From positions 1 to 37,630 of the forward strand of contig JAMCVM010000074.1 in the NCBI GenBank assembly GCA_023475835.1: a DNA stretch of 37,630 nucleotides, in the 5' to 3' direction. Made by a program: the position numbers and the translations under genes. Shown here piece by piece: positions 3,547-19,649 of the stretch; position 1 is the stretch's first letter, and every line of letters begins with the position of its first letter. The stretch comes from Bacillota bacterium. Lineage in GTDB: Bacteria; Bacillota; Sulfobacillia; Sulfobacillales; Sulfobacillaceae. The notes under the pieces are model-generated. The model searched no databases and had not been told where the DNA came from. It saw nothing but the letters and a program-made list of their open reading frames with translations.

Positions 3547-4101
3547 GTGCAAGCACGGCCGGGAGAGAGCCTCGAAGTATTAGTTTCGGCAACGGCCGTC
3601 GAAGCGCGGGTGAGGGCATTGGGGGCAGCAATCTCACGGGACTACCAAGGACGTTCGCTGCTGTTGGTAGGGATTCTTCGAGGTTCGTTCGTTTTTTTGG
3701 CAGACTTAATTCGTTCCATTGATGTTCCCGTGGCCATTGATTTTATGGCCATATCTTCCTATGGCGCCTCTACCCGATCGTCAGGAGTCGTTCGTATTTT
3801 AAAGGATCTCGATGAAGAGGTTCAAGATCGCCATCTGGTGGTGGTGGAGGATATCGTCGATACCGGTCTGACCCTCAACTACATCAAGAGTCAACTTGTG
3901 GCGCGAGATGCTGCTAGTGTGGCGATCTGTACCCTATTGGACAAGCCCAGTCGACGGCAAGTGGACGTGCACTTAGATTATCTAGGCTTTCAAATCCCCG
4001 ATGAATTTGTGGTAGGCTACGGCCTCGATTTCGATGAATGCTATCGCAACCTGCCCGATGTCTGCCGCTTGCACATCCATGGTCGGAAGGAGCTCGAATA
4101 A
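3547..4101 (+). CDS. hpt: Hypoxanthine-guanine phosphoribosyltransferase
   Basis: It converts hypoxanthine or guanine plus PRPP into IMP or GMP (purine salvage, cytosol). The PRPP-binding motif VVVEDIVDTGLTL is near residues 98-110, with the acidic pair E-D and the downstream T-G loop. ILRGSFVFLADLIR carries the conserved K/R-G loop, and the flexible-loop SSYG is near 70. The C-terminal LPDVCRLH segment is typical of bacterial HPRT. Length (about 184 residues) is normal. The start is uncertain: GTG at 3547 is nine bases from GAGGGAG. ATGs at 3520, 3526 and 3538 overlap merR but lack properly spaced sites. The stop overlaps the guaA start (TAATG), indicating coupling. Confidence 0.92.
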   Translation: MQARPGESLEVLVSATAVEARVRALGAAISRDYQGRSLLLVGILRGSFVFLADLIRSIDVPVAIDFMAISSYGASTRSSGVVRILKDLDEEVQDRHLVVVEDIVDTGLTLNYIKSQLVARDAASVAICTLLDKPSRRQVDVHLDYLGFQIPDEFVVGYGLDFDECYRNLPDVCRLHIHGRKELE

Positions 4102-5615
4102 TGGCGGTGATCGTCCTTGACTTCGGGGCTCAATATAATCATCTCATTGCTCGGCGGATTCGCGAAGCCCAAGTCTTTTGCGAGGTCCTCCCGTTTGATA
4201 CACCGGCGGCCGTTCTTCGACAAAAATCACCGCAGGCGATCGTGCTTTCAGGAGGTCCGGCCAGCGTTTTTGGGGAAGGCGTGCCTCTGCCAGATGTGGC
4301 TATTTTTTCGTTGGGGATTCCGATTCTCGGCATTTGCTATGGCATGCAGGTCATGGCCCGAATGTTGGGAGGTCAGGTTTCTCCGGCCCGAAAGCCCGAG
4401 TATGGTCGGCGAACCTTATATAAAACAGGGGAAAGCGTACTCTTTGAGAATTTTCCTGATGAAACGCCGGTATGGATGAGCCATGGCGATCAGGTGCAGG
4501 CTGTGCCTCCTGGTTTTTCGATTCTGGCGGAGACGGACACCACGCCGATTGCGGCCATGGCGGATAGCGAGCGAAAGATATGGGCGGTCCAATTTCATCC
4601 GGAAGTCTCGCACACGCCGCTGGGCTCGCACATTTTAGCGACGTTTTTGTTTGCCATTGCCAAAATTGAACCCGATTGGAAGCCGGCTGACGTTGTACAA
4701 GAGGCGGTGGCGATGATTCAACGGGCGGTTCCCAAGGGCAGAGCCTTGGTAGCCCTGTCGGGGGGAGTCGATTCGGCGGTCGCCGCAAAGTTGGCGGAAG
4801 TAGCCCTCGGGGAGCGGGTGCAGGCCGTATTGATTGATCATGGATTATTGCGTCAAGGAGAAGTGGAAGAGGTTGAGGCAGCGTTCCCAGACCTTGACTT
4901 AGTGGTGGTTGACGCCCGCAGGGAATTTATCGACGCCCTTCAAGGGGTTTCGGAACCCGAGCAGAAGCGGAAGATTATCGGCCGCGCGTTTGTGGACAGC
5001 TTTGACCGGGTGCGAGAACGACTGGGACTGGCGGATGTGCTGATTCAAGGTACGGTCTATCCTGACGTAATCGAGTCGGGCGGGCGAGGGGCACAAACGA
5101 TTAAGTCTCACCATAATGTAGGCGGGCTGCCGGAGCACATGCGCATGCGGGTGGTGGAGCCATTGCGTTGGTTGTTCAAAGATGAAGTCCGCAAGGTGGG
5201 CAGCCAACTCGGTCTTTCTGACAATTTGGTGTGGCGCCAGCCCTTTCCCGGACCGGGGCTTGCGGTCCGAATCGTGGGAGAAATCACTGCCGAACGGGTG
5301 GCGCTGGTTCGGGCGGCAGATAGGATTGTCCGCGAAGAGGTGGCCTTGGTGGACCCGGATCACCGCATCTGGCAAGCGTTTGCCGTATTGCTGGGCATCC
5401 AGTCGGTGGGGGTCATGGGCGATCAACGGACTTATGCCCATCCGATTGTGGTTCGTGTGGTCAACAGCGAGGATGGCATGACGGCAGACTGGGCCAGGAT
5501 TCCTAATGACACCCTCGATCGCATTAGTCAGCGGGTGGTGGCGGAAGTTCCCGGGATTAATCGAGTAGTTTATGATATCACTTCAAAGCCGCCCGGAACC
5601 ATTGAATGGGAGTAA
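4101..5615 (+). CDS. guaA: GMP synthase (glutamine-hydrolysing)
   Basis: It converts XMP, ATP and glutamine to GMP. In the 504-residue product, residues 1-190 are a class I glutamine amidotransferase with nucleophile Cys79 in GICYGMQ and His166/Glu168 in QFHPEV. The ATP pyrophosphatase domain carries SGGVDS at 220-225. The C-terminal XMP-binding/dimerisation domain ends in TSKPPGTIEWE, the family's invariant tail. The start ATG overlaps the hpt stop and has AAGGAG upstream. The oxyanion segment reads LSGGPASVF. The family usually binds NYSQLIARR-like residues near the N-terminus and here reads QYNHLIARR. Together with hpt upstream, it channels both salvaged and newly made purines into GMP. 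Confidence 0.97.
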   Translation: MAVIVLDFGAQYNHLIARRIREAQVFCEVLPFDTPAAVLRQKSPQAIVLSGGPASVFGEGVPLPDVAIFSLGIPILGICYGMQVMARMLGGQVSPARKPEYGRRTLYKTGESVLFENFPDETPVWMSHGDQVQAVPPGFSILAETDTTPIAAMADSERKIWAVQFHPEVSHTPLGSHILATFLFAIAKIEPDWKPADVVQEAVAMIQRAVPKGRALVALSGGVDSAVAAKLAEVALGERVQAVLIDHGLLRQGEVEEVEAAFPDLDLVVVDARREFIDALQGVSEPEQKRKIIGRAFVDSFDRVRERLGLADVLIQGTVYPDVIESGGRGAQTIKSHHNVGGLPEHMRMRVVEPLRWLFKDEVRKVGSQLGLSDNLVWRQPFPGPGLAVRIVGEITAERVALVRAADRIVREEVALVDPDHRIWQAFAVLLGIQSVGVMGDQRTYAHPIVVRVVNSEDGMTADWARIPNDTLDRISQRVVAEVPGINRVVYDITSKPPGTIEWE

Positions 5616-5674: not shown

Positions 5675-6712
5675 TTAACTGATGCTGTCCCAATCTAAGC
5701 TGCTAGACTTCGCGTAATTGAGCACTCTTTGTTCGAAAAAATCGGTTTTCTGCTGATTAAAGTGGCTGAAAGCATCAAACCAAGGATACGGCGAGTCGAT
5801 GTGTTCGGGGAAAAGGGGCGTCCAGCCAAGAGCGGTCGCCCGTTGGTTGGTTAAAAAACGAATAAAGTCACGAACCGAAGTATCGGTGATGCCAGTGACG
5901 ATGCCAGCACTGATGCGCGTTCCCCAGGCAATTTCTTGCTGTGCAGCTTCCAGTAACAAGCTTTGAAGCTCAGCCTTGAGTGATTGTGTCACCAGGCCTG
6001 GATTTTCGGCGACGATCCCGAGATAGAGGTGCTGAAACAGTACGAGGTGAGTTAACTCGTCGCGTTGAATGTAGCGAATGATCGAGGCGGTGCCCATCAT
6101 GCGATCGCTCCGAGCTAAGGCGTAAAATACCGCAAAGCCTGAAAAAAAGTAGATTCCTTCCAGTGCGCAATTGGCTATTACGGCTCGTAGAAGGTTTTCC
6201 GGCCCGGGATGGTCTAAGAATTGTTGGTAGAGTTCCGTAATGAGACGGTTGCGCTGCATCAGTTGTGCGTCTTGGCGCCAATAATTGTAGACCATGTCGC
6301 GCAGGAGAGTGTCGGCGATGCTGTCTAAGAGATAGGCGTAGCTTTGGCTGTGGACGGCTTCTTGAAAGGCTTGAACGGTTAAACAGAGTGAGATTTCGGG
6401 GGCCGTAATGTACTCGGCCAGGTTGGGCAAATTGACGGTTTGCAGGCTATCTAAAAATATGAGAAACGACAGGGTGAGATTGACGGATTGGCGATGGGAC
6501 TCAGGCAGCCTAAGATAGTCTTTGCGGTCTCGGGCCAAGGGTACTTCTTCCGGAATCCAGAAATTTTGCATCATGTTCCGATAGAGGTCGACCGCCCAGG
6601 GGTATTTGACGTTGTTAAGCTCGATGAGCCGGGTGCTGTTCCCGCCAATGATGCGTCGGGCTTGCCAGTCTCGGTCTCCGTGGGGATTAAATAACGGTGA
6701 GTTGGTGCGCAC
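5675..6712 (-). CDS. nrdB: Class I ribonucleotide reductase, small (radical) subunit
   Basis: This ferritin-like subunit holds the dimetal centre and tyrosyl radical used by NrdA. In the 345-residue product (GTG start) all metal ligands are present: Asp88 (FLDSL), Glu118 and His121 (QEAVHSQSY), Glu185 (ALEGIYFF), Glu219 and His222 (RDELTHL). The radical tyrosine is Tyr125, in E-A-V-H-S-Q-S-Y. The C-terminus is S-L-D-W-D-S-I-S, the acidic tail that docks on the large subunit. The start is GTG at 6712, eight bases after AGGAGG; the upstream TTG at 6718 is too close. No nrdI (needed by class Ib) is adjacent. It follows nrdA by 45 bases in one operon. Confidence 0.95.
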   Translation of the reverse strand: MRTNSPLFNPHGDRDWQARRIIGGNSTRLIELNNVKYPWAVDLYRNMMQNFWIPEEVPLARDRKDYLRLPESHRQSVNLTLSFLIFLDSLQTVNLPNLAEYITAPEISLCLTVQAFQEAVHSQSYAYLLDSIADTLLRDMVYNYWRQDAQLMQRNRLITELYQQFLDHPGPENLLRAVIANCALEGIYFFSGFAVFYALARSDRMMGTASIIRYIQRDELTHLVLFQHLYLGIVAENPGLVTQSLKAELQSLLLEAAQQEIAWGTRISAGIVTGITDTSVRDFIRFLTNQRATALGWTPLFPEHIDSPYPWFDAFSHFNQQKTDFFEQRVLNYAKSSSLDWDSIS

Positions 6713-6757
6713 TTTCAATGCCTCCTTAATGAGGGCAGGGATTAGGGTACAGGTGGT

Positions 6758-8932
6758 TTAGTTCGTGCAGCCGAGACACTCTATGGTTTCCAGCGACTCG
6801 GAGCGAACATAATAGAGGGTTTTGACCCCTTCCCGCCAAGCGCTTAGATAATAATCGAGAAAGTCCGCAGCGCTGGTGTTAGGCGTGATATAAAGATTCA
6901 ACGACTGCGACTGATCAAGATGGCGTTGGCGCTTCGCTGCGGCGCGAATGCTCCAGTGCGGATCAAGGTGGTGAGCGCCAATATAAAATGGAAGAGTGGT
7001 CGGAGACAAATCTGGAGCCACTTGAGGCACCATGCCCATGCGCTTTTCTTCCCAGAACAACGCTGAGAAGATCGGATCTACTCCGGCGCTGGTCCCGGCG
7101 ATTAGCGAGGTGCTCGACGTGGGTGCGATAGCCATCAGGTATCCGTTGCGAAGACCCGTGGCTTTGATTTTTTGGCGAAGTTGTTGCCAGCGTGGGTTTT
7201 TATAGCCGCGCTGGTCGAAGTACTCGCCCGTGTGCCATTGAGACCCCGAAAAATACGGATACGCGCCTTTGACTCGGGCAATCTCACTGGACTCGTCGAT
7301 GGCGGCATATGCCATGTCTTCAAACCATTGGTCTGCAGCCAAAAGATGGGCCTCCGATTCCCAGGGGATTTGGTCTAGCGCCAGTCGGTGGTGATACCCT
7401 GAAACGCCGAGTCCGATAGCACGGTACTGTCGGGCGGTATATTCAGCCTCCTTGACCGGGTATCGATTAAGGTCCACGGCAGCATCCATCATCCTTACCG
7501 CCAGCCGAGCCGCCCGAGCACGATCACTGGCGGTTGGCAGGCGGCCGAGGTTTATTGAGGCCAGATTACAGACGACGAAATCTCCGCTTGCAATTTGGGT
7601 AGTAACCACCCCGTCGAAATCTAAAGTCTCGTTCGTCCTTTGGCTGGGCCGCATATTTTGCGCGATTTCGGTGCAAAGATTGGACGCATAAATCATTCCC
7701 TGGTGAGCATTGGGATTCGCGCGATTTACCGTATCGCGGAAAAACACGAAGGGCGTTCCCGTCTCATAAGCCGAACGCATCAAGAGTTTCATAAGGTCAC
7801 GGGCTAAGAGGGTTACTTTTTTGATTCGCTCGTCCGCGATTAGCTGTCGGTAACGCGCTTCCCATTCTTCACCAAAACTGTCTTCAAGACGCCAACCCAT
7901 GGTCGTGAATACTTGATGAGGATCTAGCAGATACCACTCGGCTCGGGTCTCGACGGCCCGCATGAAGGCATCCGGAATCGATACCCCGGGAAACACATCG
8001 TGTGCCTTCATCCGCGGATCGCCATTGTTGGTGCGAAGTTCCAAAAAGTCCAAGATGTCTTGATGCCAAATATCGAGCCAGACCGAAACCGCTCCGGCTC
8101 GCACGCCCAACTGGTCGACGGCGGTGGCTGTAGTATTGAAAGTCTTAACCCAGGCGACGACGCCACCGGCAGCGTTTTCGACCTGACGAATGGAGCTTCC
8201 TTTAGCGCGCACATGACCTAAGTAAATGCCCATCCCACCGCCCCATTTTGACACCTGGGCGAACACCTGATTGGTGTGGTAGATGCTCCACAAGTCATCT
8301 TCCACGGCGTCAATAAAGCAAGAAGCCAACTGTCCCTTTGGTCGGCCAGCGTTGGCGAGGACTGGAGTGGCCACTGTCAATTCTAATTGAGACAAGGCAT
8401 CGTAGAATTGATGAGCCCAAGTTAGGCGCTCGTCACCGTAAGCACTAGCCAGGCTTAGCGCGACCACCATGAACCGATGTTGGGGCAGTTCCATCAATAC
8501 TCCCAGATGGCGTACCAAATAACGGTCAACCAACGTTTTGAGGCCCGAGTAGGGAATCAAGCGGTCGCGCTCGGGGCGGATCCAACTCCCTGCCAAAGCC
8601 AACTCTTCGGGCGAGTAGGCGGTGGTGAGAAGTGGGTCATAGAGCTCGAGTCTAATCATCTGAGCGACATAGGGCGCAAATTCTTGTGCCGCATATGCGG
8701 GGAGATTCTCGTAAATACGTCCTAAGAGGAGTGTGGCGGCAGTTTGCAGCCAAGACGGATCTTCGATGCTGACTTGGTCCAAAGCGCTTCGGATCCATTC
8801 ATCCCAAGTGTTGCTAGAAAGGGCCTGCAAGTGCTTTCGATGCATAAACGGTATCGCTTGGATCAGCCATGGCCACCCGGAGAATTGGGTGACGTCATCG
8901 TTGCGCGTCTGTTCCGAGATTTCAGTGTTCAT
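6758..8932 (-). CDS. nrdA: Class I ribonucleotide reductase, large (catalytic) subunit
   Basis: It reduces ribonucleoside diphosphates to deoxyribonucleotides. Seen in the sequence: active-site loop LASCFIDAVEDD, the thiyl loop YASNLCTEI, the second redox cysteine in FVVCNLASINLG, the phosphate-binding APTSSTSLIAGTSAGVDP, the radical-transfer pair LYYVR near the end, and a C-terminal redox pair C-L-G-C-T-N. The N-terminus shows no VxxRDG-type ATP-cone, so an overall activity site seems absent. The start is the ATG at 8930-8932, with GCGAGGAA upstream; a GTG at 8995 has no site and would lie inside the leader. About 724 residues. Expression is placed under the cobalamin riboswitch and NrdR boxes upstream. 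Confidence 0.95.
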   Translation of the reverse strand: MNTEISEQTRNDDVTQFSGWPWLIQAIPFMHRKHLQALSSNTWDEWIRSALDQVSIEDPSWLQTAATLLLGRIYENLPAYAAQEFAPYVAQMIRLELYDPLLTTAYSPEELALAGSWIRPERDRLIPYSGLKTLVDRYLVRHLGVLMELPQHRFMVVALSLASAYGDERLTWAHQFYDALSQLELTVATPVLANAGRPKGQLASCFIDAVEDDLWSIYHTNQVFAQVSKWGGGMGIYLGHVRAKGSSIRQVENAAGGVVAWVKTFNTTATAVDQLGVRAGAVSVWLDIWHQDILDFLELRTNNGDPRMKAHDVFPGVSIPDAFMRAVETRAEWYLLDPHQVFTTMGWRLEDSFGEEWEARYRQLIADERIKKVTLLARDLMKLLMRSAYETGTPFVFFRDTVNRANPNAHQGMIYASNLCTEIAQNMRPSQRTNETLDFDGVVTTQIASGDFVVCNLASINLGRLPTASDRARAARLAVRMMDAAVDLNRYPVKEAEYTARQYRAIGLGVSGYHHRLALDQIPWESEAHLLAADQWFEDMAYAAIDESSEIARVKGAYPYFSGSQWHTGEYFDQRGYKNPRWQQLRQKIKATGLRNGYLMAIAPTSSTSLIAGTSAGVDPIFSALFWEEKRMGMVPQVAPDLSPTTLPFYIGAHHLDPHWSIRAAAKRQRHLDQSQSLNLYITPNTSAADFLDYYLSAWREGVKTLYYVRSESLETIECLGCTN

Positions 8933-8936
8933 CAAA

Positions 8937-8985
8937 GATTCCTCGCTTCCTGTGACGGAGGCATCCACCAGTTGCCAGAAGCGAG
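8937..8985 (-). promoter_or_regulatory. Two alternative hairpins that mask the nrdA ribosome-binding site
   Basis: On the minus strand the Shine-Dalgarno block GCGAGGAA can pair in two ways. Positions 8937-8944 pair with 8958-8965 (eight pairs with one mismatch). Positions 8942-8949 pair with 8978-8985 (eight perfect pairs, CTCGCTTC/GAAGCGAG). No T-run is seen between the aptamer and the gene. This fits a riboswitch acting on translation initiation rather than on termination. The pairing is seen; the mechanism is inference. Confidence 0.45.
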
Positions 8986-9060
8986 AGCCAACCACCGTCG
9001 GGGCATGGCCAGGACGGAGTGAACTCCCGACCCTGCAACCGAGGGTCGCCGAGAGTATGT

Positions 9061-9234
9061 CGACAAGGCAGGTCTCCGGACTTCAAGCCTTCGGTCACAA
9101 GACCTTCCCAGGCCAGTCGACCCAGTGGTTGGACCGTCACCGGTCCTTCTCGTGCCGTTCTTGTTACCGTTGCGGGCCAGTTCTGGATTTTCACCAGATT
9201 CCCTTGACAGACACCTTGAGGTGCCACCGTGTCG
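9061..9234 (-). promoter_or_regulatory. Cobalamin (adenosylcobalamin) riboswitch upstream of nrdA
   Basis: Read on the minus strand, this segment has the conserved cobalamin-aptamer blocks in order. First is a GGGAATCTGGTGAAAATCCAG element, then GGCCCGCAACGGTAAC, then GGGAAGG, and lastly the B12 box GAAGTCCGGAGACCTGCC at 9084-9067. Closing stem P1 can form between CGACA near 9234-9230 and TGTCG at 9065-9061. B12 riboswitches lower expression when coenzyme B12 is abundant. Here the target is the B12-independent class I reductase, as known for Streptomyces nrdABS. Confidence 0.93.
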
Positions 9235-9246
9235 CCGATCGCTCTA

Positions 9247-9276
9247 ATTATCGACACATCATCCGGTGTATGTCAA
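9247..9276 (-). promoter_or_regulatory. Sigma-A-type promoter of the nrdAB leader
   Basis: On the minus strand a perfect TTGACA (9276-9271) is followed by an 18-base spacer and GATAAT (9252-9247). Transcription would start near 9240, just before the riboswitch. Confidence 0.8.
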
Positions 9277-9300
9277 TATCATAGACACTAAATATTGTGG
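9254..9300 (-). promoter_or_regulatory. Pair of NrdR boxes at the nrdAB promoter
   Basis: Two 16-bp sites of the ACAC(N8)GTGT type lie at 9254-9269 (ACAC...GTGT) and 9285-9300 (ACACTAAATATTGTGG). Their starts are 31 bp apart, the spacing of about three helical turns known for NrdR boxes. The first falls in the -10/-35 spacer, the second just upstream of -35. NrdR is a zinc-ribbon/ATP-cone repressor of RNR genes that responds to dATP/ATP. The second box fits the consensus well; the first matches mainly in its outer bases. Confidence 0.7.
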
Positions 9301-9834
9301 TTAAAACGTTTGGCGCCGACAATGGCCTAAAATTGGGAAGTCGCATTTAAGTGCGATGTTCTCACCGTTTCAGTGGATCGATAACAAAGAGTCGCCATCG
9401 GATTTTTAAAGGTTTCGACGGGAAATTAGCACCCAAGCTCCCAGGTGGGGGCAGATGGCCTAGACGTGTTAGGATCCGAATGTAAGAGACGCGGTGTTAA
9501 GGGCGGTCTCGGGATTTTAAGATTGGGCGTCAGCCGAAATACGATATGCTTAGGCTAGCCATGACTTGGGCCCTAAGGGGTTGGGGAGAGCGCAGAGTGG
9601 GGAAAATCCGTGGACTGGCCGGAACTCCAAGCGGTTCCGGGATCCGGGTACTTCTAAAGAAACCGGGGAACATTAGAATCACAGGGATTCACCAGACCCG
9701 GGGGCTCTTCGATCAGGGCGAGTTTCGGCTGCTGGTCGTGGGGCGCACGCTCCCAAGACCTAGGGATGCAAGACGGTGTGATTGATGGAATCTTGTCGAC
9801 CAATGGTCGATGCGCGCACGGGGGATGGGGATTA
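9301..9834. other. Non-coding stretch between the nrd and pur units, with several hairpins
   Basis: No believable gene is visible on either strand. Self-complementary blocks include TCGCA/TGCGA near 9342-9357, CTTAGG (9549-9554) with CCTAAG (9572-9577), and CCGGAAC (9619-9625) with GTTCCGG (9634-9640). The second half is unusually G-rich. It could hold a structured RNA or a long pur leader, or be relic DNA. I cannot match it to tmRNA, RNase P, 6S or a known riboswitch. Confidence 0.35.
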
Positions 9835-9851
9835 TCAACCGTAACGGTTGA
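9796..9851 (+). promoter_or_regulatory. Two related inverted repeats upstream of purB, one overlapping the -35 box
   Basis: TCGACC-AAT-GGTCGA at 9796-9810 and TCAACCGT-A-ACGGTTGA at 9835-9851 share the core TCRACC...GGTYGA, with centres about 40 bp apart. The second covers the start of the -35 hexamer at 9848. The arrangement is that of a dimeric repressor with two operators. The protein is unknown. Confidence 0.5.
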
Positions 9852-9898
9852 CCCAACCCGAATGTTTCAACTAAAATTGAGCCATAACGTTCGGAAAA
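9848..9898 (+). promoter_or_regulatory. Promoter of the purine operon with PurBox-like sites
   Basis: TTGACC (9848-9853), an 18-base spacer and TAAAAT (9872-9877) make a good promoter. A PurBox-like sequence (Bacillus PurR consensus AWWWCCGAACWWT) occurs on the minus strand at 9898-9886 (TTTTCCGAACGTT, 11 of 13). A weaker inverted partner CAACCCGAATGTT lies at 9854-9866. The gap between them is 19 bases rather than the 16-17 usual in Bacillus, so PurR control is plausible but not proven. Confidence 0.55.
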
Positions 9899-9908
9899 GA
9901 GGTGCCTA

Positions 9909-11234
9909 GTGATCCATAGATACAGTCGAGAACCCATGAGGCGACTTTGGTCCGATGACCATCGGTATCAGCGTTGGCTCGAGATCGAAGTACTTGCCGT
10001 AGAGGCGTGGCAGCGCCTGGGCAAGATCCCTCCGGGGGTGGCTGAACGACTGGCTTCGGCCACGGTCAAAGCCGATCGGGTGGACTATTATGAAGATCAG
10101 TATCACCACGATGTGCTCGCATTTCTTAGTGCTGCCGGCGAAACCGTGGCTGCGGAGGATGCTAAGTATTTGCATTTTGGCATGACCTCGACGGATGTGG
10201 TGGACACGGCGCTGGCGTCTCTTCTACATGAAGCGCTGGGTATGATCATCGAGGATCTTGACCGGCTGCGGACCACGATAAAGACCCTGGCAATTCGTCA
10301 CAAGGACACCGCCGTGATGGGACGGACCCATGGGATGCATGCTGAGCCGACGAGCTTCGGCTTGAAATTAGCGCTCTGGTGGGTGGACCTGGGCCGGGAT
10401 CGGGAACGTGTGGTAAGAGCAAGAGAACAAATGGGCGTGGTCAAACTCTCAGGGGCAGTGGGAAACTACGCCAATATTCCCCCCGAAGTAGAAGCTTACG
10501 TTGCCCAGGCCTTGGGCTTGTCGCCGGCACCGCTAGCCACCCAGGTGCTGCAGCGCGATCGTCATGCCGAAGTCGTGATGGCATTGGCGCTGGTTGGCAG
10601 CACCCTCGACAAAATCGCTACTGAAATCCGCCACTTGCAGCGATCAGAAGTTGGGGAATTAGAAGAGCCCTTTGCCGCCCGCCAGCGCGGATCGAGCGCC
10701 ATGCCACACAAACGTAATCCGGTCAAATGTGAACAGATTAGTGGACTTGCGCGTGTGCTTCGGGGGTATGTCGTTCCGGCATTGGAAGATATTCCCTTAT
10801 GGCACGAGAGGGATATTTCTCATTCTTCGGTAGAGCGGATCATTCTACCTGATGCGACCATGTTGACCGATTACCTATTGCATTCCATGGACTGGATCCT
10901 AGCCGGATTAACGGTGCGTACAGACCGCATGCGGTCTAACATCGAATCCTCTGGAGGATTGGTGTTTTCGCAAAAGATCTTGCTTGCCTTGATTGAAGGC
11001 GGACTCACCCGAGAAGCTGCCTATAAACTGGTGCAGTCGCATGCCATGGCTGCGCTGGAGAATCCAGAGCAGCCCTTTGCGCAGCGCTTGGCGTCGGATC
11101 CAGAGGTGAAACAGCACATATCATTGCAAAAGCTTTCGACGTTGTTTGAAATTACTCCTTATTTAGCCCGGGTGGACGAAATTTTTCTGAGAATCGGACT
11201 TTACTCGGACCAAGCGGACGGCACGGGGCGTTGA
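9909..11234 (+). CDS. purB: Adenylosuccinate lyase
   Basis: It acts twice in purine synthesis, splitting SAICAR to AICAR and adenylosuccinate to AMP, each with release of fumarate. The 441-residue product shows the fumarase/aspartase-superfamily signature GSSAMPHKRNP at about 261-271, the HFGMTSTD loop near 87-94, and MGRTHGMHAEPTSFG near 137-151 with the catalytic histidine. The start is GTG at 9909 after AAAAGAGGTG; the N-terminus MIHRYSREPM..LWSDDHRYQRWLEIE matches the family. It is the first gene of the operon. In Bacillus it follows purE and purK, which are missing here. purC starts 34 bases downstream. Confidence 0.96.
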   Translation: MIHRYSREPMRRLWSDDHRYQRWLEIEVLAVEAWQRLGKIPPGVAERLASATVKADRVDYYEDQYHHDVLAFLSAAGETVAAEDAKYLHFGMTSTDVVDTALASLLHEALGMIIEDLDRLRTTIKTLAIRHKDTAVMGRTHGMHAEPTSFGLKLALWWVDLGRDRERVVRAREQMGVVKLSGAVGNYANIPPEVEAYVAQALGLSPAPLATQVLQRDRHAEVVMALALVGSTLDKIATEIRHLQRSEVGELEEPFAARQRGSSAMPHKRNPVKCEQISGLARVLRGYVVPALEDIPLWHERDISHSSVERIILPDATMLTDYLLHSMDWILAGLTVRTDRMRSNIESSGGLVFSQKILLALIEGGLTREAAYKLVQSHAMAALENPEQPFAQRLASDPEVKQHISLQKLSTLFEITPYLARVDEIFLRIGLYSDQADGTGR

Positions 11235-11268
11235 CGGAGAGATTCGACCCCATCTTACGGAGGCGATT

Positions 11269-11970
11269 ATGAGCGGAGAACTGTTGTACGAAGGCAAAGC
11301 TAAACGGGTCTATGGATCAGACCAGGATGACGCAGTGGTCATGGAATTCAAAGATGATGCCACTGCTTTTAACGGTGAAAAACGAGGCCAAATTGCCCAA
11401 AAAGGGGTGATTAACCGCGCCTTGACCACTAGGATTTATCGCTATCTTGAAGAGCATCGGATTCCCACTCATGTCTTGGCCGAGATCGACGATCGTCGTC
11501 TTTTGGTGCGGCGGTTGGAGATGATTGGTTTAGAGGTGGTGGTCAGAAATCGTGTGGCCGGATCGCTTTGCCAACGCACTGGGTTGGAAGAAGGCACCGG
11601 GCTGCAATCGCCTATCGTAGAGTTTTACTTCAAGAATGATCGCCTGGGCGATCCCTTGCTTAACGACGATCACATCCTGGCGCTTAATTTGGCGGATGAG
11701 TCCACGATTCACGACCTTCGCGCCTTGGCCCTTCGGGTTAATCGCGTGTTGACGCCGTTTCTTTTCGAACGAGACCTGATTTTGGTCGATTTCAAGCTGG
11801 AGTTTGGCCGGTTTCAGGGGCAGTTAATGTTGGGCGACGAGATTTCGCCCGACACGTGTCGGCTGTGGGATCGGGTGAGTCTGAACAAGTTGGATAAGGA
11901 TCGGTTTCGCCGCGACTTGGGCGATGTGGAAGAGGCGTACCAAGAAGTGTGGAGGAGGGTGCAAAGGTGA
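11269..11970 (+). CDS. purC: Phosphoribosylaminoimidazole-succinocarboxamide synthase (SAICAR synthetase)
   Basis: It ligates CAIR and aspartate using ATP to give SAICAR. At 233 residues it has normal length. Family motifs in order are YEGKAKRVY near 7-15, FKDDATAFNGEKRGQI near 27-42, VVVRNRVAGSLCQRTG near 87-102 and LILVDFKLEFG near 167-177. The ATG has GGAGG seven bases upstream. The stop TGA overlaps the GTG start of purS (GTGA), indicating translational coupling. Confidence 0.97.
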   Translation: MSGELLYEGKAKRVYGSDQDDAVVMEFKDDATAFNGEKRGQIAQKGVINRALTTRIYRYLEEHRIPTHVLAEIDDRRLLVRRLEMIGLEVVVRNRVAGSLCQRTGLEEGTGLQSPIVEFYFKNDRLGDPLLNDDHILALNLADESTIHDLRALALRVNRVLTPFLFERDLILVDFKLEFGRFQGQLMLGDEISPDTCRLWDRVSLNKLDKDRFRRDLGDVEEAYQEVWRRVQR

Positions 11971-12227
11971 CCCAATTTCGGTTGCGGATGGCAGTGACCT
12001 TAAAGCCTGAAGTCTTGGATCCCGCCGGCCAGGCGACCCAGCAGGTCGTGCACGAACGGGGGTTTCCCGAGGTTTCGGAACTCAGGATCGGCAAGGTGGT
12101 AGACATCGCGATGCATGCTCATTCTGCGGAGGATGCCTTGGCCAAAGCCCGGCGTTTGGGCAACGAATTTTTAGCCAATCCGGTGTTGGAAAGATTTGAG
12201 GTGTGGGTGCAATCGGATGAAACCTAA
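11967..12227 (+). CDS. purS: FGAM synthase subunit PurS
   Basis: This 86-residue accessory subunit bridges PurQ and PurL in the three-part FGAM synthetase found in Firmicutes. The fold is evident from RMAVTLKPEVLDPAGQA, the V.ELRIGKVVDI strand and the AEDALAKARRLGNEFLANPVLE helix, ending in FEVWV. The start is GTG at 11967, seven bases after GGAGGAGGG and overlapping the purC stop. An upstream GTG at 11949 would place the site inside the gene. The 3' end overlaps purQ by 11 bases. Confidence 0.93.
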   Translation: MTQFRLRMAVTLKPEVLDPAGQATQQVVHERGFPEVSELRIGKVVDIAMHAHSAEDALAKARRLGNEFLANPVLERFEVWVQSDET

Positions 12228-12906
12228 GGTGGCGGTGATTCGGTTCCCCGGCTCCAATTGTGACCGCGATACCGTTCAGGCATTTCAAAGCCTAGGCGCG
12301 GAGACCACCATCCTGGCCTATGACCGTGAAGATTTGGAGGACGCCACCCACGTGGTCTTGCCCGGAGGGTTTTCTTACGGCGATTACCTTCGTGCGGGAG
12401 CGTTGGCGGCTCACGCGCCGATTATGCAGGCGTTGGTCGACGCCATCAGTCGTGGGGCCATCGAGGTGTTGGGGATTTGCAATGGATTTCAGATTCTCTG
12501 CGAGCGCGGGATCTTGCCCGGGGCGTTGTTTGCTAACGTATCGGGGCAATTTCGATGTAGTTGGGAATGGGTCGAAGTGCTCACCCCGCCGGCCCGATGG
12601 CCCGGGTTTCGCCGAGGTATGCGCTTTCGTTTGCCCATTGCCCATGCTGATGGAGCGTATCGAATTGGCCACTCCGATCGTGAGGCGCTCTGGGCTCAGG
12701 GCTCGGTCTTTTTGCGCTATGTCGATCCTGATGGCCAGGAGACGGGTGAGTATAATCCCAATGGTTCGTGGGAGGCCATTGCCGGCATTAGTGAGGGCCC
12801 GGTGATGGGATTAATGCCTCATCCCGAAAGGGCTATGCAACCGTGGTTGGGCTCCAAGGACGGACGCTTGTTCCTGTCTCTATGGCTGCAGGAGGTGCCG
12901 CAATGA
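12217..12906 (+). CDS. purQ: FGAM synthase, glutamine amidotransferase subunit
   Basis: It releases ammonia from glutamine for PurL. In the 229-residue product the N-terminal strand VAVIRFPGSNCDRDT is followed by LPGGFSYGDYLRAGA, and nucleophile Cys88 lies in GICNGFQ. The catalytic His/Glu are in LMPHPERA near 203-210. The start ATG at 12217 lies within the end of purS, and the stop overlaps the purL start (ATGA). The short 11-base overlap with purS suggests the three subunits are made in matched amounts. Confidence 0.96.
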   Translation: MKPKVAVIRFPGSNCDRDTVQAFQSLGAETTILAYDREDLEDATHVVLPGGFSYGDYLRAGALAAHAPIMQALVDAISRGAIEVLGICNGFQILCERGILPGALFANVSGQFRCSWEWVEVLTPPARWPGFRRGMRFRLPIAHADGAYRIGHSDREALWAQGSVFLRYVDPDGQETGEYNPNGSWEAIAGISEGPVMGLMPHPERAMQPWLGSKDGRLFLSLWLQEVPQ

Positions 12907-15128
12907 CGCCTGACGCGGTGGGATTGACGGCAAAAGAGGCCGAGCGTGTCCGCCAATTGTGCGGGCGAGAACCAAATGATTTGGAATGGGGCTTGTTTGG
13001 CGCACTTTGGTCCGAACACTGCAGCTACAAAAGTTCGAAGCGAGTTTTGGCCTGGCTGCCCAAAGAGGGGCCTCAGGTGGTGGCTGGACCCGGCGGCAAC
13101 GCCGGTGTGGTGCGACTCGATGACCGTATGGAAGTTGCGTTTAAAGTGGAGTCGCACAACCACCCCTCTTATGTGGAACCGGTGCAGGGTGCGGCTACCG
13201 GCGTGGGAGGAATCATTCGCGACATCGTGGCCATGGGCGCACGACCGATTGCGCTAATGGACTCGCTGCGTTTCGGTTTGGAGGGCAACGGACAGCGGCT
13301 TCGAGACGGGGTGGTCGCAGGTATTGGCGGCTACGGCAATGCGATTGGAGTGCCCACGGTGGGCGGCGAGGTGTACTACGGACCGGGATATGCTAAAAAT
13401 CCCTTGGTCAACGTTCTCTGTGTGGGTGTCCGCCAATCGAAAGATGCCATCGTCGGCGCATCCGGAGCGCGTCCAGGGCAAATGGTTTATCTTCTTGGTC
13501 AGGCTACCGGTCGCGATGGCATTCATGGGGCGAGTTTGTTGGCTTCGCGCGATTTTTCAGCGGACGATCAAGACATGCGGCCAACGGTCCAAGTGGGCGA
13601 TCCTTATACCGGTAAACTGTTGATGGAAGCCACTTTAGCCGCGATTGAGACGGGTGGGGTGGCTGCGGTCCAGGATTTGGGCGCGGCTGGATTGGTTTCG
13701 GCTTCTTCCGAACTGGCGGTCCAATCCCAAGTGGGGTTAGAACTGCACTTGGACCAGGTGCCGTGCCGCGAATCGGCCATGAGCGGCTATGAAATAATGA
13801 TGTCTGAGACCCAGGAACGGATGCTGTTGGTGCTGAATTCCGCGCACGGGGGAGAGGCTCTGGCAGCGATTTCACAGTGGGGATTGAACGCGACGCCAAT
13901 TGGGCGGGTGACGGCAAGTGGTCGCTATGTTCTCTACTTCGGCGAGCGTGAGGTGGCCAATCTCGAGGCATCGTGGTTAGTCGACGGCTGTCCTCTAACG
14001 CCCGCCGGCAAAGATCTAGTGGCGCCGGCTTTTAAGCCCATGAGGCCATCGCCGGGATCTATGGAAGAAGGCGTTGAGGAGGGCTTTGACGCAGGGGCAT
14101 TGATGGCCATTGCTTCTGACCCCGATTGTCGGGAACGAAGACCGATATTTCAGCGATATGATTCAATGATTCAGACGGCGACGGTATGGGGCCCGGATCA
14201 TGAGGTTTCGGTTTTGACGGTGGATGGATCGCCCTGGGGTCTGGCGTTGGCGGTCTCGGGCATAGGGCGTTGGGCAGCGGTCGATGCGTATGCGGGGGGC
14301 GCGGCAGCGGTAAGTGTGGTGGTGTCGCGGCTGGCCACTCAGGGGGCGGTAGCCTTAGGCTTGACGGATGGACTGAACGCAGGCAATCCCGACAAGCCCG
14401 AGGTCAAACAGGCATTCGAACAGATGGTATTAGGCATTCGCGATGCCGCGCGCGCCCTCGATGTGCCGGTGACCGGCGGCAATGTGTCGTTTCACAACGA
14501 GACCGATGGCGCTGCCATTTGGCCCACCCCGGTGATAGGAGGGGTCGGCCGTCATTTCCATCCCACGGCTCCTGTGGCGGACAGCCTGAACCGCCCGGAT
14601 GTGACCCTGCTGTTGATCAATCCCGCACTAAGCCCAAGCCTGGGCGGGAGTGTGTGGGAACGTCAGCATGGGGTGCTGACGGCGTACCCTAGGGTGCGCT
14701 TAAGCGATTTAGCGCACACGGTGACTTGGTTGGGCACGGCGGTCTCCGACGTCGATGCGGACATTCGGGCGGTTCGGGCCGTCGCGGATGGGGGGCTTTG
14801 GCTCGCTTTAGTGAAAATGTGGCTGGCTAGTGCACCCTCGGTGGGCATGACGGTGACCTTGGAGGCTGTCCACGCCATGCCCAGGCTTCTTTCCGAGGAG
14901 GCAGGCCAATTTTTGGCAGCGGTGGCCACTACCCGGGTGGAAGCGACCCTCCTGCAATTGCAATCAAACGCTATCGGATGCCTGGTGGTTGGCCAGGGAC
15001 ACGATGGCGACTACCTAGAACTTCAGGTGGGGCGCCCGTCTCGGTGGACTCGACGATGGTCGCGTAGTCAGATGAGAGCGGCCTGGCAATCTTGGGAAGG
15101 AGACTCGGGTGGCTCAGGAACTCCATGA
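12903..15128 (+). CDS. purL: FGAM synthase, large synthetase subunit (small PurL type)
   Basis: ATP-dependent conversion of FGAR to FGAM using ammonia from PurQ. At 741 residues this is the short PurL that needs separate PurS and PurQ. Seen: LWSEHCSYKSSK near 36-46, KVESHNHPSYVEP near 80-92, VGGEVYYGPGY, and the second-half VTGGNVSFHNE motif. The start ATG follows GGAGGTG and overlaps the purQ stop; an in-frame upstream ATG at 12843 lies deep in purQ and is rejected. The gene's end overlaps purF by 20 bases. Confidence 0.97.
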   Translation: MTPDAVGLTAKEAERVRQLCGREPNDLEWGLFGALWSEHCSYKSSKRVLAWLPKEGPQVVAGPGGNAGVVRLDDRMEVAFKVESHNHPSYVEPVQGAATGVGGIIRDIVAMGARPIALMDSLRFGLEGNGQRLRDGVVAGIGGYGNAIGVPTVGGEVYYGPGYAKNPLVNVLCVGVRQSKDAIVGASGARPGQMVYLLGQATGRDGIHGASLLASRDFSADDQDMRPTVQVGDPYTGKLLMEATLAAIETGGVAAVQDLGAAGLVSASSELAVQSQVGLELHLDQVPCRESAMSGYEIMMSETQERMLLVLNSAHGGEALAAISQWGLNATPIGRVTASGRYVLYFGEREVANLEASWLVDGCPLTPAGKDLVAPAFKPMRPSPGSMEEGVEEGFDAGALMAIASDPDCRERRPIFQRYDSMIQTATVWGPDHEVSVLTVDGSPWGLALAVSGIGRWAAVDAYAGGAAAVSVVVSRLATQGAVALGLTDGLNAGNPDKPEVKQAFEQMVLGIRDAARALDVPVTGGNVSFHNETDGAAIWPTPVIGGVGRHFHPTAPVADSLNRPDVTLLLINPALSPSLGGSVWERQHGVLTAYPRVRLSDLAHTVTWLGTAVSDVDADIRAVRAVADGGLWLALVKMWLASAPSVGMTVTLEAVHAMPRLLSEEAGQFLAAVATTRVEATLLQLQSNAIGCLVVGQGHDGDYLELQVGRPSRWTRRWSRSQMRAAWQSWEGDSGGSGTP

Positions 15129-16497
15129 GGAATGCGGTGTGTTTGGGATTTATAACGATCCGGAAGCAGTCAGCGAGACCTATTGGGGGATTTTCAGTCA
15201 GCAACATCGCGGGCAAGAAAGTGCCGGCATTGCGGTAGTCGGCGAAGACCATCTGATCGCGGTGCGAAAAGGGATGGGGTTGGTCACCGAGGTGCTGAAT
15301 CCAGTGCTCTCCGAACTTCCTCGGGGCCGGGCCGCCATCGGCCACGTACGCTATTCCACGACCGGTGAATCCGAGGCGTTTAATGCCCAACCGCTGCTCA
15401 TGCATGCCCGCTTTGGCCCTATTGCCTTGGCTCACAATGGCAATGTCGTCAATGCGCGGGCACTGAGAGACCATTTAGAAGAGGAAGGGGCCGTCTTTCA
15501 AGGGACCAGTGATAGTGAAATTCTAGCTCACCTTATCGCTAAGAGTTCTAAAGATTCGATGGTCGAAGCGTTGGCTGAGGCGGTTTCGAGGCTTTTGGGA
15601 GGATACGCCTTCGTAGTCCTTCACGCCAGTGGTCTGTTTGCCGTCCGCGATCCTCATGGGATTCGTCCGCTCGTGCTGGGCCGTTCGAAATCTGGCCAGG
15701 GCTATGTGCTGGCCTCGGAGACCTGCGCTTTGGACATCGTCGGTGCGGAGTATATGCGTGATATCGACCCGGGAGAATTGGTGGCCATCGGGCCCAAGGG
15801 AATGGAGCGGCGCCGGGTCGGCGAGGCATTGCCGATTCGTGACTGCGCCTTTGAATCGGTCTATTTTGCGCGCGCCGATTCGCAAATCCGAGGCGAAAGT
15901 GCGCAGATGGCCAGGCGTCGTCTCGGTCGAGTGTTGGCGAAAGAGGCTCCGGTGGATGCCGATGTCGTGGTGGGGGTCCCAGACTCCAGTCTGCCCCATG
16001 CGATGGGATACGCCGAAGCCTCCCACATTCCTTTTGATTTTGGATTGGTGAAGAACCGATATATTGGCAGAACGTTTATTCTGCCCAAACAGTCGGATCG
16101 CACGCGACAGGTTCAGTTGAAATTGTCTTCCGTGATAGAAGTCGTATACGGCAAACGCGTGGTGTTGGTCGACGACTCACTGGTGCGAGGGACGAATTCT
16201 CGCTATCTCATCCAGTTGTTGCGCCGGTCCGGGGCAACCGAGGTGCACATGCGCATTGCCTCACCCCCGTATACTGATCCTTGTTACTATGGAATTGACA
16301 CCTCGCGCGCGGCGGAGTTAGCGGCGCGGACCAAGTCCGTGGAGGAAATTCGGCAGATGGTGGGAGCAGACTCTTTGGCATATCTGTCACTGGATGGTCT
16401 TCGCGCAGGATTGAAGGATGAAGGTTGGTGCCTCGCATGTTTCGGCGGCGGCTATCCGGTAGTCCCCGCCAACACCAAGGAGGATGAGCGTGGCTAA
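15109..16497 (+). CDS. purF: Glutamine PRPP amidotransferase (Fe-S, propeptide type)
   Basis: First committed step of purine synthesis: PRPP plus glutamine to phosphoribosylamine. A short propeptide MAQELHEE precedes Cys9 (CGVFGIY), which becomes the N-terminal nucleophile after self-cleavage. The PRPP motif VVLVDDSLVRGT is near 351-362. Four cysteines match the Bacillus [4Fe-4S] ligands: in CAFESVYFARADS, in DPCYYGID and the pair in WCLACFGG. The enzyme is therefore probably oxygen-labile, with a structural cluster. The start is GTG at 15109, six bases after AAGGAG, inside the end of purL. Confidence 0.96.
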   Translation: MAQELHEECGVFGIYNDPEAVSETYWGIFSQQHRGQESAGIAVVGEDHLIAVRKGMGLVTEVLNPVLSELPRGRAAIGHVRYSTTGESEAFNAQPLLMHARFGPIALAHNGNVVNARALRDHLEEEGAVFQGTSDSEILAHLIAKSSKDSMVEALAEAVSRLLGGYAFVVLHASGLFAVRDPHGIRPLVLGRSKSGQGYVLASETCALDIVGAEYMRDIDPGELVAIGPKGMERRRVGEALPIRDCAFESVYFARADSQIRGESAQMARRRLGRVLAKEAPVDADVVVGVPDSSLPHAMGYAEASHIPFDFGLVKNRYIGRTFILPKQSDRTRQVQLKLSSVIEVVYGKRVVLVDDSLVRGTNSRYLIQLLRRSGATEVHMRIASPPYTDPCYYGIDTSRAAELAARTKSVEEIRQMVGADSLAYLSLDGLRAGLKDEGWCLACFGGGYPVVPANTKEDERG

Positions 16498-16513
16498 CGA
16501 CGGAGGAGACAAC

Positions 16514-17524
16514 ATGGAGTTCGGATATCGCCAGGCGGGTGTAGGGTTGGATCGAGCGGACGAGGCGGTCCATCGGATTCGCCGAGCAATCGCAACCCGG
16601 CCGTCGCAGGCCCAAGGCTTGAGCGCTATCGGTCAATTTGCTGGGGAATACGCCCTTCAGCCTGGGACCACCCTCCTAGCCGGCGCCGACGGAGTCGGCA
16701 CCAAAATTTTAGTGGCTAAAGCCATGGGAGAAGCTCGGAGCCTTGGGGTGGACTTGGTCGCGATGAACGTTAACGACGTGCTGGCATCGGGGGGGCGGCC
16801 TTTGTTCTTTTTAGATTATATTGCGTCTCAGCGACTCGACCCGGATCTGGTCGAGTCTTTAGTGGAAGGCATGATCGATGGCTGTGATCAGGCACAGTGC
16901 GTATTGCTGGGCGGCGAAACCGCAGAGATGCCCGGCCTTTATGCCCCCGGCGACTATGACTTGGCCGGATTCGCGGTAGGCCTCAAGGTGTTCGATGGCA
17001 CTCCCTGTCAAGTGGGAGACTTGGTGCTGGGGATTTTGGCCGATGGGTTTCATGCCAACGGCTTCAGTTTGGTCCGCAAGATTGTCCAAGATTCTCAATT
17101 AGATTACCACGCACGTTACGCGCCCATTGGCAATATGGTGTTGGGCAGCGCTTTGTTGAAGCCGACGCCGATTTACGTGGCACCCATATTAGAGACCCTG
17201 CGCCGTCTACCCGCTGCAGTGCGCGGCATGGCGCATATTACTGGGGGAGGTCTGATCGATAATTTGCCTCGGGCCCTGCCCCAGCACTTAGGGGTCGAGT
17301 TAGACCGTCAACATTGGGCGATGCCCGAACTGATGCAATGGTTTCAGCAACTGGGGGCGTTAAGTTTTGAAGAAATGGTCCATAGCTTCAACGGTGGGAT
17401 TGGCTTTGCGATGATCGTAGATCCCCGACTGGCGGAACCTGTAGTCAGCCTGCTCGCCGGATTTAAGCTTAAGGTGGAAGCGATCGGCACCGTGATTGAG
17501 AGCCCGGGAGTGCATTGGAAATGA
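16514..17524 (+). CDS. purM: Phosphoribosylformylglycinamidine cyclo-ligase (AIR synthetase)
   Basis: It closes the imidazole ring (FGAM to AIR, ATP-dependent). The 336-residue product has YRQAGVGLDRADEAV at the start, LLAGADGVGTKI near 53-64, MNVNDVLASGGRPLFFLDY, LLGGETAEMPG and HITGGGLIDNLPR, all family hallmarks. Start choice: ATG at 16514 has GGAGGAG five bases away and gives the usual N-terminus. A GTG at 16490 after AAGGAGG, overlapping the purF end, is the alternative. The stop overlaps the purN start (ATGA). Confidence 0.96.
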   Translation: MEFGYRQAGVGLDRADEAVHRIRRAIATRPSQAQGLSAIGQFAGEYALQPGTTLLAGADGVGTKILVAKAMGEARSLGVDLVAMNVNDVLASGGRPLFFLDYIASQRLDPDLVESLVEGMIDGCDQAQCVLLGGETAEMPGLYAPGDYDLAGFAVGLKVFDGTPCQVGDLVLGILADGFHANGFSLVRKIVQDSQLDYHARYAPIGNMVLGSALLKPTPIYVAPILETLRRLPAAVRGMAHITGGGLIDNLPRALPQHLGVELDRQHWAMPELMQWFQQLGALSFEEMVHSFNGGIGFAMIVDPRLAEPVVSLLAGFKLKVEAIGTVIESPGVHWK

Positions 17525-18162
17525 AGTGGGCGGTTTTGGTGGGAGGCAAGGGCAGCAACCTCCAAGCCTTGTTGGACCACTCGTTAGAGGTGGGCTTGGT
17601 GATTTCCCACCGAGAAGGCGTCGGGGCACTCCAGGTGGCCGAAGCCCATGGTCTAGCGCACACCACGATTTTGCCGGGAGCATTTGGCTCTCGAGCAGAG
17701 TATGGCCAAGCACTGCGGGATGCATTGGAGCGGACGCACATTGAGGCCATCGCCCTGGCAGGATTTATGCGTTGGTTGGATGGGGAGACGGTAGCCGCCT
17801 GGTCTGGGAAGATCTTTAATATTCATCCCTCCTTGCTGCCCGCGTTCGGTGGGATGAATGCCGTAGGCCAAGCGTTGGCCCACGGTGTCCGTTGGACTGG
17901 AGTTACCATCCACCTGGTGGACGAAGGCGAAGACAGTGGACCGATTGTGGCCCAGGTCCCGGTCCCGGTGCTGGGCGATGACACCGAAGAGTCATTGAGT
18001 GAACGCATTCATCGCATTGAGCACCAGATCTATGGCCCCGTACTGAAGGCTTTCGAGGCCGAAAGCTTCGGCGTTCACGGACGACGAGTGATTTGGCGAC
18101 ACGACATTGAAGGGTTCGAGGGGGGTCGTTATGCAGTGGGCATTGATCAGTGTGACCGATAA
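17521..18162 (+). CDS. purN: Phosphoribosylglycinamide formyltransferase
   Basis: Transfers a formyl group from 10-formyl-tetrahydrofolate to GAR. The 213-residue product carries GGKGSNLQAL (8-17) for phosphate binding and the catalytic triad Asn100 and His102 (IFNIHPSLLPAF) and Asp138 (EGEDSGPIVAQ). The loop before HPSLLPAF and the truncated GMNAVGQAL helix are as in the family. The start ATG overlaps the purM stop. The C-terminal 32 bases overlap purH, a longer overlap than elsewhere in the operon. Confidence 0.95.
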   Translation: MKWAVLVGGKGSNLQALLDHSLEVGLVISHREGVGALQVAEAHGLAHTTILPGAFGSRAEYGQALRDALERTHIEAIALAGFMRWLDGETVAAWSGKIFNIHPSLLPAFGGMNAVGQALAHGVRWTGVTIHLVDEGEDSGPIVAQVPVPVLGDDTEESLSERIHRIEHQIYGPVLKAFEAESFGVHGRRVIWRHDIEGFEGGRYAVGIDQCDR

Positions 18163-19630: not shown

Positions 19631-19649
19631 ACAGAAGGGAGCCCATGTG

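What the first reader, a model, noticed from the sequence alone, without database searches (positions are those of the whole stretch)
8932..9300. Class I ribonucleotide reductase under double control by a cobalamin riboswitch and NrdR
A cobalamin aptamer with a clear B12 box lies in the nrdAB leader. Two ACAC-N8-GTGT sites start 31 bp apart across the promoter. B12 repression of a B12-independent reductase makes sense only if a class II enzyme (NrdJ) is present. NrdR would add a dNTP-level signal. Streptomyces is the known precedent.
Basis: partly seen in the sequence, partly recalled or inferred. Interest (0 to 1): 0.62.

Follow-up and report, generated by a model that had tools for sequence, protein, structure and literature searches.

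The report
B12 and NrdR control of nrdAB
The genes for a B12-free, oxygen-using DNA-building-block enzyme carry two predicted off-switches, a vitamin B12-sensing RNA and a binding site for the nucleotide-sensing repressor NrdR, and the genome also encodes the B12-using enzyme and the repressor; this layout is already known from other bacteria and is here found in another lineage.

Summary
A complete cobalamin riboswitch (Rfam RF00174, 97.7 bits, cut-off 31.5) covers 9246-9050 on the minus strand, in the leader of nrdA (start 8932) and nrdB. Upstream, TTGACA-18-GATAAT (9276-9247) is bracketed by two NrdR-like boxes exactly 31 bp apart: 9285-9300 just upstream of -35 and 9254-9269 in the -35/-10 spacer. 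A matrix trained only on other genera ranks this pair first in the window (23.8 bits; next 9.6) and no shuffle reaches it. Both stated refuters fail: the genome has nrdR and nrdJ side by side, with their own box pair. Class II NrdJ is present in all 14 surveyed genomes whose nrdA carries the riboswitch (four of these are trimmed, weak matches); six nrdA genomes without NrdJ have none at nrdA; two genomes are exceptions. No terminator-like sequence was found in the leader; an 8-bp hairpin can cover the Shine-Dalgarno, so translational control is the likelier output. The same arrangement is published for Cutibacterium (Propionibacterium) acnes and, across papers, Streptomyces coelicolor. New member of a known kind. 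One extra: NrdR holds the only ATP-cone detected in this genome; the cone of this genus's NrdA has lost its nucleotide-binding motif.

The parts
9285..9300 (-). NrdR-like box 1 (distal), CCACAATATTTAGTGT on the coding strand, just upstream of -35
   Evidence: 16.05 bits with a matrix trained on other genera, rank 1 of all 16-mers in the window; conserved position in relatives
9254..9269 (-). NrdR-like box 2 (proximal), ACACCGGATGATGTGT, in the -35/-10 spacer; 31 bp from box 1
   Evidence: 7.8 bits alone (rank 12), pair score 23.8 is rank 1 in the window, next best 9.6; the C4 and G13 positions contacted in the NrdR-DNA structure are kept
9247..9276 (-). Predicted sigma-70 type promoter TTGACA-18-GATAAT
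   Evidence: 11 of 12 consensus matches; TTGAC kept in most relatives with the riboswitch
9050..9246 (-). Cobalamin riboswitch aptamer (RF00174)
   Evidence: cmscan 97.7 bits, E 2.2e-23; second copy in the genome upstream of a FecCD-type transporter
9022..9055 (-). P13-like hairpin directly 3' of the aptamer (ACUCUCG...CGGGAGU outer stem, ACCCU...AGGGU inner stem)
   Evidence: sequence; forcing it raises the SD-sequestering hairpin from 0.10 to 0.97 in the fold model; a similar two-part hairpin can be read after the aptamer in relatives (sequences)
8940..8986 (-). Predicted SD-sequestering hairpin: CUCGCUUC pairs with GAAGCGAG, which overlaps the Shine-Dalgarno GAGGA ahead of ATG 8932
   Evidence: partition-function fold; both arms identical in the second species of the genus, L096
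6758..8932 (-). nrdA, class I ribonucleotide reductase large subunit (724 aa, ATP-cone degenerate)
   Evidence: TIGR02506 579 bits; PF02867 and PF00317, no PF03477; best solved relative 7agj
5675..6718 (-). nrdB, class I ribonucleotide reductase small subunit with metal ligands and radical tyrosine
   Evidence: NF007184 430 bits; alignment to 6zjk and 7ail

Best explanation
The nrdAB operon encodes an oxygen-dependent, B12-independent class I ribonucleotide reductase that is switched off at two levels. At the DNA, a NrdR tetramer loaded with dATP and ATP binds two boxes three helical turns apart that bracket the -35 element and fill the promoter spacer, so RNA polymerase cannot bind when dNTPs are plentiful; the same protein represses its own nrdRJ operon. 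At the RNA, adenosylcobalamin binds the leader aptamer, a P13-like hairpin forms, and the freed strand CUCUCGCUUC pairs with the Shine-Dalgarno region so nrdA is not translated. The cell then relies on class II NrdJ when B12 is available and falls back on NrdAB when B12 is short. Shown here: aptamer, boxes, promoter, both reductases, NrdR, and their co-occurrence. Inferred: ligand response, direction of control, and the translational mechanism.
For: Aptamer far above cut-off. Box pair is rank 1 in the window and unmatched in shuffles. nrdR and nrdJ adjacent, with a box pair upstream of nrdR (25.8 bits). NrdR keeps R12, D15, R17, RRRR26-29 and R37, the DNA contacts named in PMC9110341 (sequence; alignment to 7p37). 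Riboswitch near nrdA in 14 genomes with NrdJ and in none of six without it. G009, G017 and G026 have nrdA but no NrdJ and no cobalamin riboswitch found anywhere, yet keep boxes at nrdA. No terminator-like site in the leader. Forcing P13 raises the SD hairpin from 0.10 to 0.97.
Against: No expression or binding data. Two genomes with NrdJ (G013, G103) lack the riboswitch at nrdA. In the second species of the genus the SD hairpin is predicted stable even without P13 (0.88), so the exact anti-sequestor is not conserved. A Rho-dependent or other termination output cannot be excluded. A PduO-type cobalamin adenosyltransferase was not found; the CobA/BtuR type was not searched.
Confidence: 0.85

Rival explanations
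1. Dual control exists, but the riboswitch acts by transcription termination (intrinsic or Rho-dependent) rather than by hiding the Shine-Dalgarno sequence.
For: In Streptomyces coelicolor B12 controls nrdABS transcription (title of Borovok 2006, cited in PMC4342826), and in Cutibacterium acnes most nrdAB transcripts end before the first gene (PMC3848588). Rho-dependent stops leave no clear sequence mark.
Against: No terminator-like site in 8800-9950 and no stem plus T run flagged in the leader; a strong SD-overlapping hairpin is present.
Confidence: 0.25
2. Only the riboswitch is functional; the 31-bp box pair is a decayed or chance match and NrdR acts elsewhere.
For: Box 2 has a less AT-rich centre (ATCATCCG) than the consensus and scores only 7.8 bits on its own, rank 12 in the window.
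Against: Pair score unmatched in shuffles; position, spacing and -35 overlap repeated in relatives including the same-genus genome, where box 2 has an AT-rich centre.
Confidence: 0.08
3. The riboswitch is not about choosing between two reductases but simply belongs to a B12 regulon, with nrdAB under it by descent.
For: Some relatives have a thioesterase gene between riboswitch and nrdA, and two genomes break the NrdJ rule.
Against: Presence or absence of the riboswitch at nrdA and of NrdJ agree in 20 of 22 genomes (Fisher p 4e-4, not corrected for descent).
Confidence: 0.07

Closest known systems
Cutibacterium (Propionibacterium) acnes nrdAB and nrdRJ operons (PMC3848588)
   Same: Cobalamin riboswitch in the nrdAB leader, NrdR box over the nrdAB promoter, box pair at an nrdRJ promoter, nrdR co-transcribed with nrdJ.
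   Different: There a single box was found at nrdAB and transcripts mostly end before nrdA; here a clear pair with 31-bp spacing and no visible terminator. That organism also has nrdDG; no class III enzyme was found here.
Streptomyces coelicolor nrdABS and nrdRJ (Borovok 2004, 2006; Grinberg 2006; PMC9110341)
   Same: Class I reductase under B12 riboswitch and NrdR, class II in an nrdRJ operon, boxes about three turns apart and over the polymerase site.
   Different: No nrdS looked for here; the control output there is described as transcriptional.
Bacillus methanolicus AdoCbl riboswitch upstream of nrdAB (PMC4342826), and Bacillus sp. SA1-12 and Metabacillus loci found here (L022, L023)
   Same: Riboswitch ahead of nrdAB in Bacillota; the two loci also carry box pairs.
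   Different: NrdA of the two loci only about 45 percent identical; leaders differ; NrdR boxes were not discussed in the passages read.

Membership tests
Cobalamin riboswitch (RF00174) | Covariance-model score above gathering with complete aptamer core and B12 box | tested here: met
   97.7 bits against 31.5, model 1-189
Cobalamin riboswitch (RF00174) | Binds AdoCbl and changes expression | not testable with these tools
   needs in-line probing or a reporter
NrdR regulon promoter | Two palindromic boxes with 15-16 bp spacer (31-32 bp apart) overlapping the polymerase site | tested here: met
   spacer 15 bp, boxes at 9254 and 9285 around TTGACA; 15-16 bp is the common spacer in PMC12051234
NrdR regulon promoter | NrdR with Zn-ribbon and ATP-cone encoded in the genome | tested here: met
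   TIGR00244 197.5 bits; PF22811 and PF03477
NrdR regulon promoter | Measured binding or repression by NrdR | not testable with these tools
   needs MST, EMSA or a reporter
Class I ribonucleotide reductase | NrdA and NrdB with dimetal ligands and radical tyrosine | tested here: met
   families; ExxHxxxY (EAVHSQSY) and DELTH motifs in NrdB
Class II B12-dependent reductase elsewhere in the genome | NrdJ above curated cut-off | tested here: met
   TIGR02504 550.1 bits against 399.95 on C83
Streptomyces-type dual control (riboswitch plus NrdR on class I, nrdRJ for class II) | nrdR and nrdJ side by side with their own NrdR boxes | tested here: met
   6-bp gap between nrdR and nrdJ, box pair 25.8 bits upstream

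The most novel reading that the evidence does not exclude
In this genus the dATP brake has moved from the enzyme to the gene. NrdA has lost the nucleotide-binding motif of its ATP-cone, NrdJ has no detectable cone, no class III enzyme was found, and the only ATP-cone detected in the genome is in NrdR, so overall dNTP feedback would act through transcription alone, with B12 as a second, RNA-level input.
Probability: 0.3. Interest if true: 0.45.

Novelty: new member of a known kind. Interest (0 to 1): 0.3.

Why it matters
It extends a regulatory layout known best from Actinomycetota to another lineage (by my guess an acidophilic Bacillota group), and the class-wide pattern gives a comparative test of the old idea that cells silence a B12-free reductase when B12 lets a class II enzyme work: in the genomes followed here, those without NrdJ do not carry the riboswitch at nrdA, while three closely examined ones keep the NrdR boxes. 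It makes a clean prediction for a two-input promoter-leader and for dNTP feedback without an enzyme-borne ATP-cone.

Tried and rejected
The intergenic stretch 9400-9770 has GGTTTCGACGGG, which looks like a tmRNA 5' end; ARAGORN and permissive Rfam found nothing, and its divergence in the same-genus genome looks like that of ordinary intergenic DNA. A genome-wide single-box pattern was too loose to be useful (24 hits against 13 for the reversed control). I thought of an SD-hiding hairpin in the thioesterase-bearing relatives, but the ATG I had used is out of frame with the gene, so I dropped it. A kissing contact between L5 (UGAAAAU) and L13 was looked for by eye and not settled. The lineage is unnamed: the same-genus genome holds a contig that matches a record titled Clostridiales MAG (DAHXNH010000034), but that title is not proof; a Sulfobacillus-like group is my guess.

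Full report
Observation. The window holds nrdA (8932-6758, minus) and nrdB (6718-5675, minus), identified by curated families and by solved relatives. The NrdB alignment keeps EAVHSQSY and DELTH, that is metal ligands and the radical tyrosine, so this looks like a tyrosyl-radical class I enzyme that does not need B12. Rfam reports one RNA in the window: a full-length cobalamin aptamer at 9246-9050, minus, 97.7 bits against a gathering score of 31.5. The promoter scan gives TTGACA-18-GATAAT at 9276-9247, so transcription would start within the first bases of the aptamer match.

NrdR boxes. The second departs from GTGT by one base but is the stronger box. To judge chance I trained a matrix on 15 boxes from other genera, leaving out this genome and its congener, and scored the window. 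The pair is first in the window at 23.8 bits, the next pair is 9.6. None of 20000 dinucleotide shuffles of the 120 bp upstream of the aptamer, and none of 100 shuffles of the window, reached it. The training boxes were themselves picked by consensus and spacing in relatives, so the matrix carries that expectation; the window was not used. Spacing is 31 bp with a 15-bp spacer, the common value (15-16 bp; PMC12051234), and both boxes keep the C and G, nine positions apart, that the NrdR-DNA structure shows as critical (PMC9110341). Box 1 lies just upstream of -35 and box 2 lies in the -35/-10 spacer.

Genome. nrdR (197.5 bits) and nrdJ (550.1 bits) are neighbours with a 6-bp gap on another contig. 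NrdR has the Zn-ribbon and ATP-cone and the DNA-contacting residues R12, D15, R17, RRRR26-29 and R37. A box pair of 25.8 bits lies upstream of nrdR. A second cobalamin riboswitch precedes a FecCD permease and an ABC ATPase, plausibly a B12 importer. No class III enzyme was found. A PduO-type adenosyltransferase was not found; another type may be present.

Comparison. In 154 genomes of the class I followed 23 that carry this NrdA or a related one. A riboswitch lies 5' of nrdA on its strand in G000, G001, G003, G007, G008, G011, G108, G121, G124, G130 and, as a trimmed match, in G136-G139 (two of these below the gathering score). All have NrdJ. G009, G017, G026, G102, G106 and G107 have nrdA but no NrdJ over the cut-off, and none has the riboswitch there; for G009, G017 and G026 none was found in the genome. 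In G102, G106 and G107 the class I match is itself close to the NrdJ cut-off, so their class is less certain. G013 and G103 have NrdJ and no riboswitch at nrdA. G127 cannot be judged, since its nrdA is cut by the contig end. The table 14/2 against 0/6 gives Fisher p 4e-4, not corrected for shared descent; restricted to the closer NrdA relatives (9/1 against 0/3) p is 0.014. In G003, G121 and G124 a thioesterase gene stands between riboswitch and nrdA. The order box, -35, box, -10, aptamer recurs in these promoters, and Bacillus sp. SA1-12 and a Metabacillus have riboswitch plus boxes at nrdA too. Box pairs score upstream of nrdR in the genomes with NrdJ that I scanned, and none is seen upstream of nrdR in G009, G017 and G026, though these keep boxes at nrdA.

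Mechanism. The leader from 9050 to 8932 has no terminator-like element. GAAGCGAG, overlapping the Shine-Dalgarno GAGGA, can pair with CUCGCUUC about 30 bases upstream. In the partition function of the 149-nt platform this hairpin has probability 0.10 when the region folds freely, because a long alternative helix takes up CUCUCGCUUCU, and 0.97 when the hairpin next to the aptamer is forced. In the free fold the Shine-Dalgarno is not open either: it pairs with early coding sequence instead (unpaired probability about 0.1), so the calculation supports a switch in partner, not a clean opening. In the congener the hairpin is favoured in both cases (0.88 and 0.975), so the alternative helix is not conserved. 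This step is a model. What is shown is sequence and co-occurrence; ligand binding, repression and the output level are inferred.

Literature. The combination is known. In Cutibacterium acnes the nrdAB leader has a cobalamin riboswitch, an NrdR box overlaps its promoter, and nrdRJ has a box pair (PMC3848588). S. coelicolor NrdR binds both nrdAB and nrdRJ promoters with dATP plus ATP (PMC9110341), and its nrdABS operon is under a B12 riboswitch (Borovok 2006, cited in PMC4342826 and PMC4991794). B. methanolicus has the riboswitch at nrdAB. Hence: new member of a known kind.

Extra. The only ATP-cone found in this genome is in NrdR. NrdA here and in the congener has lost the VTKRDG part of the cone and keeps only the later helices, whereas NrdA of G003 has a cone Pfam detects. 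Degenerate cones also appear in G007, G013, G026 and G130. NrdJ has no cone match. This suggests that dATP feedback may rest on NrdR alone, but remnant cones can still bind dATP in some enzymes (own knowledge, Bacillus NrdE), so it needs an assay.

Noticed in passing
window 6758-8932 (N-terminus of NrdA); L096; L033 1378-3696: NrdA of this genus has a degenerate ATP-cone without the VTKRDG motif, while G003, G009, G011, G017, G121 and G124 keep it; the sole ATP-cone detected in the genome is in NrdR.
   Followed up: partly
L033 3723-4238 and the same place in L059, L060; broken in L030, unclear in L029: A hot-dog thioesterase gene lies between the cobalamin riboswitch and nrdA in several relatives and looks frameshifted in G008; it is absent from this place in the window.
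   Followed up: partly
L098 (G013:C224) and L099 (G013:C195): G013 has two nrdA-like loci, NrdJ, NrdR boxes but no riboswitch at the complete nrdA, an exception to the rule.
   Followed up: partly
L021 3981-4152: Second cobalamin riboswitch of the genome, upstream of a FecCD-type permease and ABC ATPase, plausibly B12 uptake.
   Followed up: partly
window 9301-9908: About 600 bp of intergenic DNA between the nrdA promoter and purB, with no RNA family found; a tmRNA-like string (GGTTTCGACGGG) appears to be chance.
   Followed up: yes
window 9909-20900: A long purine biosynthesis cluster (purB, purC, purQ, purL, purF, purM, purH, purD) runs away from nrdAB, with guaA on the other side (4038-5615), so nucleotide and deoxynucleotide genes sit together.
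   Followed up: no
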